Origin: Branchiostoma lanceolatum
Taxonomy: Eukaryota > Chordata > Leptocardii > Amphioxiformes > Branchiostomatidae
DNA: 64,000 bases
Direction of reading: 5' to 3'
Assembly: GCF_035083965.1 (NCBI RefSeq)
Contig: NC_089724.1
Span: 3,396,001-3,460,000 of the forward strand
The notes beneath the pieces were generated by a model. It was not told the DNA's origin. It worked only from the letters and a program-made list of their open reading frames with translations, and did not search any database. Every line of letters begins with the position of its first letter. The first letter of the stretch is position 1. The translations under genes and the position numbers were made by a program. Shown one piece after another: positions 1,747 through 4,700 of this stretch.

Positions 1747-4700
1747 CTGAAAGTTTAAGAAGATTAGTTACGACCTCCACCTGCTTCACTGTCCTTCAAC
1801 TAGAGTTACATCTTACCGCAGCGGTCTATACAATTACGGGGCTCAGTTATGGAACACTCTCTCACTGGAACAGCGAACTGTACTTAATTACAAGACATTT
1901 AGGAATCCCATTATCAGCGGCAATTGACATCTGAATTTAAGGTGGCGATATTGTTTGGTTGTTATATTATTATGTGATTATTGCTAAACGTGTTTTTAGA
2001 TTTAGTATCAGGGATACCTGAAAAACAGGCTTGCTCCCCGAGTGTATTTCCCCAGTGTAGATGAATAAGTAGTGATAGTGACATTCATCTTAAAGTTGTG
2101 GATAGCGGTTGCTCATAGAGAACATATGAAAAACAAATAAAGAAGGACGGAAACATCAATGAAGAATGAAAAAAGAGAGAACCAGAGGAAAACATAAAAT
2201 GAAACAAAGTACGAGAAATAAATGTTAAAAGAAAGAAAAGGTTACAAATGATAAGAAATAGTGACACATGCCAGGAATTCAGGGCTTGAACCCAATGCCA
2301 GCATTTATGTATATTGAATAATCGATTAATACTTTTCAGTCATTGTGATACCTCTGGATCGATCCGTGTGATGGCAGCGGTATGTGGCGCGGGTACCATC
2401 GCCATGTCCGTGTTCTGTAGGGTAGGGCCTGTGTGTGTTCTGTAGGGCAGGGCCTGTGTGTGTTCTGTAGGGTAGGGTCAGTGTGTGTTCTGTAGGGTAG
2501 GGTCTGTGTGTGTTCTGTAGGGTAGGGTCTGTGTGTGTTCTGTAAGGTAGAGTCAGTGTGTGTTCTGTAGGATACAGTTAGATCGTCCCTACCTTTGGAT
2601 CGATCCTTGTGATGGCAGCTGTATACGGCGCGGGTACCGTCACCATGTCCGTGTTCTGTATAATGTAGGGTAGGGTCTGTGTGTGTTCGCGTGTGTTTTG
2701 TAACAGTTCTGTTACTAGTTAGATGTTAGATCGTCCTTACCTTGGGATCGATCCTTGTGATGGCAGCTGTGTGCGGCGCGGGTACCATCGCCATGTCCGT
2801 GTTCTGTAGGGTAGGGTCTGTGTGTGTTCGCGTGTGTTCTGTAACAGTAAGTTCCGTGAGTTATGTCGTTCCTACCTTAGGATCGATCCGTGTGATGGCA
2901 GCTGTGTGCGGCGCGGGTACCATGGCCATGTCCGTGTTCTGTAGGTCAGAGTCAGTGTGTGTTCTGTATATTCTACAGAGTCAGTGTGTGTTCTGTATAT
3001 TCCATTGAGTTAGAGTTAGATCAGCCTTACCTTTGGATCGATCCGTGTGATGGCTGCTGTATGGGGCGCGGGTACCACCGCCATGTCCGTGTTCTGTAGG
3101 TCAGAGTCAGTGTGTGTTCTGTATATTCTACAGAGTCAGTGTGTGTTCTGTATATTCTATTGAGTTAGAGTTAGATCGTCCTTACCTTTGGATCGATCCG
3201 TGTGATGGCAGCTGTATGGGGCGCGGGCACCATGGCCATGTCCGTGTTCTGTAGGTAAGGGTCAGTGTGTGTTCTGTAGGATACAGTTAGATCGTCCCTA
3301 CCTTGGGATCGATCCGTGTGATGGCAGCTGTATGGGGCGCGGGCACCATGGCCATGTCCGTGTTCTGTAGGTAAGGGTCAGTGTGTGTTCTGTAGGATAC
3401 AGTTAGATCGTCCCTACCTTGGGATCGATCCGTGTGATGGCAGCTGTATGGGGCGCGGGCACCATGGCCATGTCCGTGTTCTGTAGGTAAGGGTCAGTGT
3501 GTGTTCTGTAGGATACAGTTAGATGGTCCTTACCTTGGGATCGATCCGTGTGATGGCAGCTGTATGGGGCGCGGGTACCATCGCCATGTCCGTGTTCTGT
3601 AGGTAAGGGTCAGTGTGTGTTCGCGTGTGTTCTGTAACAGTTCTGTGAGTTAGAGTTAGATCGTCCTTACCTTGGGATCGATCCGTGTGATGGCAGCTGT
3701 ATGGGGCGCGGGTACCATCGCCATGTCCGTGTTCTGGAGAAACCCCAGCCCGCCGAAGTTTGTAAGCTTCTCGTACTTCCGCCACTTCGCTCGTCTGTTC
3801 TGGAACCAGATCTGGAGAGGGACAAGGAAGAAAAATCAAAATCAAATCTTTATTCACACAACAAAAGTACAGCGACTTTATTAAGGTCTACTAAATCTAT
3901 ACAAACATACCTACATACATACAAGCAAACAAGTACATGCAAATTAATTTGTTAACATACAGTCAATCATATATAGAGCAAAGTATTGAAATTTTACTTT
4001 ACGTTGACCTCAGATTAACTGTCCTGCTAAGTTTCCATCTGTCCTCACCTGAACTCTTGCCTCCGGCAGCTTGGTCTTCCTGGCCAGCTGTTCCCGCGTG
4101 TGTACATCCGGGTAGTGCGTGACCTTGAACACGTCCTCTAACGCCTTCAGCTGTTCCGCAGAGAACGTCGTCCTCACCCGGCGCATGCGCTTCGCCCTCC
4201 TCTCCGACCCTTCCTCTGAGACAGGCGTGTCCGTCCCACCGCTGCAGACCGACTCGCGCCCCGTCTCGGACGCGCTGTCACCGACGTCGTACACGTCAGC
4301 GTCCGTGACGTCGCCGTCAGGCACGTCGACGTCGGTGGCGTCGTCACCGGGCGACCTGGCGTCATCGCTGGCGAAGAGCTGGTCTGATCTTTCTGTAAAC
4401 GACATCAGTTTTTTTTTTTAGCTTGGGGAAAACCTCGTGCATTACGACCATAGAACGTCCAGGACAAAAGAGAACAAAAGTTATGCTGCAGTACCAATGT
4501 CACACACCAGGATGCCCAAAATCTCCCTTGATCTTCCTCATCCCAAGACTTACCCACAAACCAAATACCATCTAGAGGTTTTCAAGTTATGGTGACCACA
4601 AACATCCAGACACACACACACATACATACATACATACATACACAGACAGAAACACACACACTCAAACACGAACACACACGCGCGCACTCAGACAGACACA

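What the first reader, a model, noticed from the sequence alone, without database searches (positions are those of the whole stretch)
2352..3811. Tandem array of nine extra in-frame micro-exons in a homeobox gene
Seen: nine 63-nt copies of the exon 3 tail, each with a CAG acceptor and nearly all with a GTARGG donor, phase 0/0, between the homeodomain exon and the OAR exon. Inference: transcripts could carry 0-9 additional 21-residue units (316 to 505 residues), making a variable spacer between DNA-binding domain and OAR motif. I know of no described homeobox gene of this design.
Basis: partly seen in the sequence, partly recalled or inferred. Interest (0 to 1): 0.93.

Follow-up and report, generated by a model that had tools for sequence, protein, structure and literature searches.

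The report
Nine repeated exon copies, lancelet homeobox
In a lancelet gene for a DNA-binding regulator, the end of one exon has been copied nine times into the next intron with splice signals and reading frame kept, a striking case of a repeat type already known in lancelets; whether the copies ever reach the protein is not yet known.

Summary
On the minus strand, nine in-frame 63-nt copies of the exon 3 tail (3596..2352) lie between the homeodomain exons and the OAR exon of a Branchiostoma Isx-like homeobox gene. All nine have CAG/GT borders; joining none or all gives 316 or 505 residues. Tandem repeats of exon-intron borders are a described lancelet phenomenon ("mirages": Adh3, troponin C, globins, PGBD5). 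So the class is known. Unusual here: each copy is a complete phase-0 cassette exon, and the copies vary mostly at silent sites (10 silent, 5 replacement variants; P about 0.001 against neutrality; 0.03-0.05 against re-seeding from exon 3). The unit carries a [VI]PAP motif found after the homeodomain in 109 of 120 related proteins. No database protein listed in three searches has more than one unit; the two B. lanceolatum models skip the copies or stop in intron 3. Best reading: a mirage minisatellite, started by an 8-nt match between exon and intron repeat, whose copies are splice-competent, usually skipped and tolerated because in frame. A variable VPAP spacer is possible, unproven.

The parts
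9237..9444 (-). exon 1 (ATG at 9444; HSIDNILG motif), ends in phase 1
   Evidence: matches N-terminus of P0001-P0004
4049..4392 (-). exon 2: acidic region and most of homeodomain
   Evidence: Pfam Homeodomain at residues 140-196 of the joined protein
3671..3811 (-). exon 3: end of homeodomain, FGGL, and the 21-residue unit with VPAP
3671..3733 (-). source unit (u0): exon 3 tail starting after an in-exon CAG
3534..3596 (-). copy u1, identical to u0
3418..3480 (-). copy u2, identical to u3
3302..3364 (-). copy u3, identical to u2
3186..3248 (-). copy u4
3031..3093 (-). copy u5 (one replacement)
2876..2938 (-). copy u6
2741..2803 (-). copy u7
2593..2655 (-). copy u8 (three replacements)
2352..2414 (-). 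copy u9 (one replacement; donor GTATCA)
2415..2592 (-). last spacer between copies: mostly a run of the 25-nt intronic minisatellite headed CAGAACAC
   Evidence: Tandem Repeats Finder row 2410-2571, period 25, 6.5 copies
3597..3670 (-). first spacer (74 nt): GTAAGGACGATCTAA gives a stop if retained, then an acceptor segment like the 25-mer
   Evidence: same end as P0004
1489..1746 (-). exon 4 with OAR motif and stop

Best explanation
This is a lancelet 'mirage' (a minisatellite that repeats an exon-intron border) in an Isx-like homeobox gene. Inferred origin: the intron held a 25-nt minisatellite whose unit starts CAGAACAC; exon 3 also contains CAGAACAC. An exchange or slippage at this 8-nt match fused an intronic branch-site-like and acceptor segment to the exon tail with its own donor, and further unequal exchange multiplied the product. 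Each copy thereby became a complete phase-0 cassette exon. Inferred working: the splicing machinery mostly joins exon 3 to the OAR exon, and sometimes retains intron 3 (stop after four codons, OAR lost) or includes one or more copies. Because every combination of copies stays in frame, inclusion is tolerated, and copies that would damage the protein are removed by selection. Shown: anatomy, frame, borders, the stops, the silent-site bias. Not shown: any transcript that contains a copy.
For: Anatomy and frame. Eight of nine spacers contain CAGAACAC; upstream of the shared CAG, exon 3 and the copies agree at only 4-6 of 27 positions, so the likeness starts at CAGAACAC. Retention of any of the nine introns that precede a copy gives TAA at codon 5 (9 of 9); P0004 of B. 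lanceolatum ends so...DPKVRTI, and agrees with that read-on at 231 of 235 residues. Per-site variant states: silent 0.65, replacement 0.11, donor-side intron 0.53, acceptor-side intron 0.92 or 0.38 without u8, whose acceptor stretch is shifted by extra bases. Five of 15 variants replace a residue against 11.0 expected, P 0.0012. Residue 18 is Ile in all ten copies and in P0004 but Val in B. floridae and B. belcheri, which fits lineage-specific spread or homogenisation. Published mirages with the same habit. A second mirage-like repeat in the window.
Against: No transcript or protein with two or more units was found, so tolerance through inclusion is unproven. The nine variants found in one copy only include 5 replacements against 6.6 expected, P 0.19: the newest changes look close to neutral. 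Re-seeding of copies from constrained exon 3 is rejected only weakly (P 0.03-0.05), and that test assumes independent events and no gene conversion. Three of nine acceptors (u7-u9) lack a CTRAY branch-site match within 60 nt. Every spacer also holds at least one further upstream AG, and several of these would shift the frame or bring a stop, so clean inclusion is not assured. Introns of 53 nt are near the low end for a deuterostome (recalled).
Confidence: 0.62

Rival explanations
1. Inert mirage: the copies are never spliced in. The silent-site bias comes only from repeated re-seeding or gene conversion from exon 3, which is under selection.
For: Globin RT-PCR and data on Adh3 and troponin C are reported to show normal mRNA (PMC3087553; PMC3902484). 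No multi-unit protein found. Variants private to one copy are not depleted of replacements (5 of 9).
Against: Under plain re-seeding replacements should still be half as frequent as neutral; 5 of 15 is low, P 0.03-0.05. Nine of nine copies keep frame, length and both splice borders although flanking intron sites vary.
Confidence: 0.25
2. Functional variable module: splicing includes 1-9 copies in a regulated way and so sets spacer length and number of VPAP motifs between homeodomain and OAR.
For: All paths are in frame; all ten units keep VPAP, and [VI]PAP lies after the homeodomain in 109 of 120 related proteins; replacement changes are depleted.
Against: B. floridae and B. belcheri models have one unit; of the B. 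lanceolatum models one has one unit and one, cut at the inner donor ATG|GTACCC, has none complete. Stage or tissue control could not be tested.
Confidence: 0.12
3. Assembly artefact: the number of copies is inflated or scrambled by assembly of two haplotypes or by slippage (can hold beside the others).
For: u1 equals u0 and u2 equals u3 over their 63 nt; a globin mirage was called aberrantly assembled in the draft genome (PMC3087553 supplement note); no genome held to check.
Against: Six of nine copies (u4-u9) have a sequence of their own, which joining two haplotypes would hardly create. Mirages are reported at other loci.
Confidence: 0.06

Closest known systems
Lancelet mirages: BflGb6 and BflGb9 globin genes (PMC3087553, section 16 read)
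   Same: Tandem repeats of an exon-intron border, unit about 150-160 bp; in BflGb6 81-100% alike, with 6 and 3 units in two haplotypes; many but not all units carry AG/GT signals
   Different: There one border is repeated (acceptor side in BflGb6, donor side in BflGb9) and RT-PCR suggested regular splicing; here each repeat holds acceptor, in-frame exon and donor, nine times, with silent-site bias
Adh3 and troponin C mirages of lancelets (as cited in PMC3087553 and PMC3902484; original papers not read, PMC117041 not held)
   Same: Repeats over splice borders; Adh3 length-unstable; mRNA reported normal
   Different: Adh3 units 10-72 bp as cited; no full cassette exon mentioned in what I read
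PGBD5 of B. floridae (PMC3902484, passages read)
   Same: 60-bp and 108-bp imperfect repeats overlap exons 3 and 4; repeat number differs between two assemblies
   Different: The authors left a predicted extra exon out as less plausible
Intron gain by tandem duplication with AG/GT signals (Rogers model, cited in PMC3087553; potato RdRp, PMC4974935, search listing and start of abstract only)
   Same: Tandem duplication can turn a proto-splice site into a splice border
   Different: Here the acceptor seems to come from an intronic minisatellite fused at an 8-nt match, and whole exons rather than one intron result

Membership tests
Lancelet mirage minisatellite | Tandem repeat whose unit spans an exon-intron border | tested here: met
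Lancelet mirage minisatellite | Host is a lancelet | tested here: met
   Best protein matches: B. lanceolatum P0001, 296 of 301 aligned residues identical (15 window residues unmatched); B. floridae P0002, 276 of 316; B. belcheri P0003, 272 of 315
Lancelet mirage minisatellite | Copy number differs between haplotypes | not testable with these tools
   one haplotype only; no genome held
Lancelet mirage minisatellite | Normal mRNA unaffected by the repeats | tested here: inconclusive
   listed protein models of three species carry no extra unit, but models are not transcripts
Isx-like PRD-class homeobox gene | Homeodomain of paired type plus OAR motif | tested here: met
   Pfam Homeodomain 4.9e-24 and OAR 5.3e-07, both above cut-off; best solved relatives by sequence are DUX4, ALX4 and other paired-like homeodomains
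Isx-like PRD-class homeobox gene | Orthology to vertebrate Isx by gene tree | not tested
   only best matches seen: many vertebrate hits named Isx in the 120 listed; sources also name lancelet orthologs DRGX, dorsal root ganglia homeobox-like or retina and anterior neural fold homeobox 2-like
Alternatively spliced cassette exons | Transcripts with and without the exon | not testable with these tools
   no reads or cDNA held; three protein searches listed no protein with a unit-unit junction

The most novel reading that the evidence does not exclude
A length-unstable minisatellite has become a coding dial: individuals carry different numbers of splice-competent exon copies, and splicing sets how many VPAP units sit between homeodomain and OAR, so a transcription factor's spacer and motif count vary by allele and by splicing.
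Probability: 0.12. Interest if true: 0.8.

Novelty: new variant of a known kind. Interest (0 to 1): 0.47.

Why it matters
Mirages were proposed as raw material for new introns and exons (PMC3087553). Here the predicted intermediate seems to stand in full: ready-made cassette exons, nine times, in frame, inside a developmental regulator, with a silent-site bias hinting that they reach the protein. That makes the step from repeat to exon directly testable in one gene with RT-PCR, and the very high heterozygosity of lancelets (PMC9673378, passage) should supply natural copy-number variants.

Tried and rejected
Protein search for a unit-unit junction with a 101-residue query: 13 candidates, none at E 10 or better. 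Whole-array query scored on residues 200-440: three lancelet proteins with at most one unit each and two weak hits of other kinds (E about 0.5); only the 7991 candidates sharing most words were scored. Search of the window's own genome: none held. Literature, listings only unless named as read: 18 papers for lancelet homeobox/Isx/OAR and one for lancelet plus 'intestine-specific homeobox', no title or abstract start on splicing of this gene; zero papers for lancelet homeobox mini-exons; five for lancelet tandem exon duplication and two for minisatellite cassette arrays, not opened. The library holds open-licence papers only. 'Micro-exon' as a class was set aside because of length. Structure prediction was not run: I expect the unit to lie in a disordered spacer, and a fold would not tell whether copies are spliced in. 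Upstream AGs in the spacers as alternative acceptors: one search looked from position 40 on, from position 20 on; every spacer has at least one such AG, many give a stop or shift the frame, some stay open; it stays unresolved.

Full report
What is there. On the minus strand of the window a four-exon gene can be read: exon 1 9444-9237, exon 2 4392-4049, exon 3 3811-3671, exon 4 1746-1489, joined to a 316-residue protein with a homeodomain and an OAR motif. Between exons 3 and 4 lie nine further copies of the last 63 nt of exon 3. All nine are 63 nt, open, phase 0/0, with CAG before and GT after; seven of nine donors are GTARGG. With all nine the protein would have 505 residues. Repeat scores rule out chance.

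Which gene, which animal. The best database matches are lancelet proteins: P0001 and P0004 of B. lanceolatum, P0002 of B. floridae, P0003 of B. belcheri. The model is identical to P0001 at 296 of 301 aligned residues (15 more window residues have no partner), to P0002 at 276 of 316, to P0003 at 272 of 315, so the window is B. lanceolatum or a very close relative. Source names vary (DRGX, dorsal root ganglia homeobox-like, retina and anterior neural fold homeobox 2-like, intestine-specific homeobox); many vertebrate proteins in the 120 listed hits are named Isx. I call it Isx-like; no gene tree was made.

What public models show. P0002 and P0003 carry one unit. P0004 carries one unit and then VRTI and ends; exon 3 read on into GTAAGGACGATCTAA gives the same protein at 231 of 235 residues. 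P0001 fits exon 3 cut at an inner GT (ATG|GTACCC, GT at 3715) and joined to exon 4: 301 residues, 296 identical, VPAP lost. I take both to come from the BraLan3 annotation, from naming and contig size (inference). That annotation combined RNA-seq assemblies, B. floridae protein alignments and Augustus, and dropped models whose exons overlapped repeats (PMC9673378, section 14 read), so models do not exclude inclusion. Three protein searches listed no protein with more than one unit (counted in the 122 held proteins). One search listed the best 120 of 4150 hits; a multi-unit lancelet protein would be expected at the top. Clusters at 90% identity can hide isoforms.

How the unit is built. Eight of nine spacers begin GTRRGRAC (the one after u5 reads GTAAGGCT), and eight of nine hold one or more segments headed CAGAACAC (not the one before u8); the spacer before u9 is mostly 25-nt minisatellite. 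Exon 3 itself has CAG|AACAC at the unit's start, and upstream of it shares only 4-6 of 27 positions with the copies. So the left edge of the repeat sits at the 8-nt match CAGAACAC, shared by exon and intronic repeat. An exchange there would hand the exon tail a ready acceptor: CTGAC at -13 and a CAG, seen in six of nine spacers; those before u7, u8 and u9 lack a CTRAY match near the acceptor. This origin is inference from the sequence. All nine introns that precede a copy give TAA at codon 5 if retained; the last intron, after u9, gives a stop at codon 4. Each spacer also has at least one further AG upstream of the unit's own acceptor; in eight of nine (all but the one before u7) at least one of these leads to a stop.

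Do the copies matter? Among the ten units there are 15 variant states: 10 silent, 5 replacing (one in u5, three in u8, one in u9). Given the same base changes placed at random, 11.0 replacements are expected; P for 5 or fewer is 0.0012. Mean pairwise pN/pS is 0.096. Silent variants occur at 0.65 per site, replacements at 0.11, donor-side intron at 0.53, acceptor-side intron at 0.92 (u9's downstream and u0's upstream flank left out as not homologous). The 0.92 is inflated by u8, whose acceptor stretch is shifted; without u8 it is 0.38, so the contrast with replacement sites stays but is smaller. If copies were untranslated but seeded at different times from constrained exon 3, half the neutral replacement weight is expected; P is 0.0475 or 0.0297 by the two ways of counting. 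Against this: the six variants shared by several copies are all silent (P 0.0003), but of nine private ones five replace a residue, not different from neutral (P 0.19). The events are few and not independent. I read this as suggestive.

The unit and the protein. Just after the homeodomain, [VI]PAP occurs within 45 residues in 109 of 120 proteins that had the helix-3 pattern, of 122 held (the two without the pattern are the unrelated hits P0121 and P0122). These are top hits to a query that contains VPAP, so the sample leans that way. All ten units keep VPAP. The motif's role is unknown to me.

Known kind. Tandem repeats over exon-intron borders in lancelets are called mirages: Adh3, troponin C, globins BflGb6 and BflGb9, PGBD5 (PMC3087553 section 16; PMC3902484 passages). 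The globin authors proposed that such a unit may turn into a real exon. A second mirage-like repeat lies in this window at 61572-61714: a 39-nt stretch three times, separated twice by GTACGTACAG, 10 nt and too tight to splice one by one. That it is an exon end is inference; two frames are open and no Pfam family matched the one peptide tried. The complete, in-frame, nine-fold cassette form in a homeobox gene was not seen in my literature searches (mostly listings).

Verdict. Observation confirmed; a variable spacer is possible but without transcript support. I file it as a new variant of a known kind.

Noticed in passing
window 61572-61714, minus strand: Second mirage-like repeat: 49-nt unit of 39 nt ending CTAAAG plus GTACGTACAG, 2.9 copies. 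Two reading frames are open in front of it; the peptide of one frame has no Pfam match.
   Followed up: partly
window 18702-22524, minus strand: Retrotransposon-like set: reverse transcriptase ORF (RVT_1), tyrosine-recombinase-like ORF (below Pfam cut-off), and a Q-rich ORF with CCHC-like cysteines (by eye) holding a 48-nt coding repeat.
   Followed up: partly
window 36975-38834, plus strand: 620-codon ORF with reverse transcriptase domain, probably a non-LTR element (inference).
   Followed up: partly
window 3715, minus strand, versus P0001: The B. lanceolatum model P0001 uses an inner GT (ATG|GTACCC) of exon 3 and so loses the part with VPAP; real isoform or model error is open.
   Followed up: partly
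window 43873-44830: 382-nt tandem repeat, 2.5 copies, with no ORF of 120 codons or more over it.
   Followed up: no
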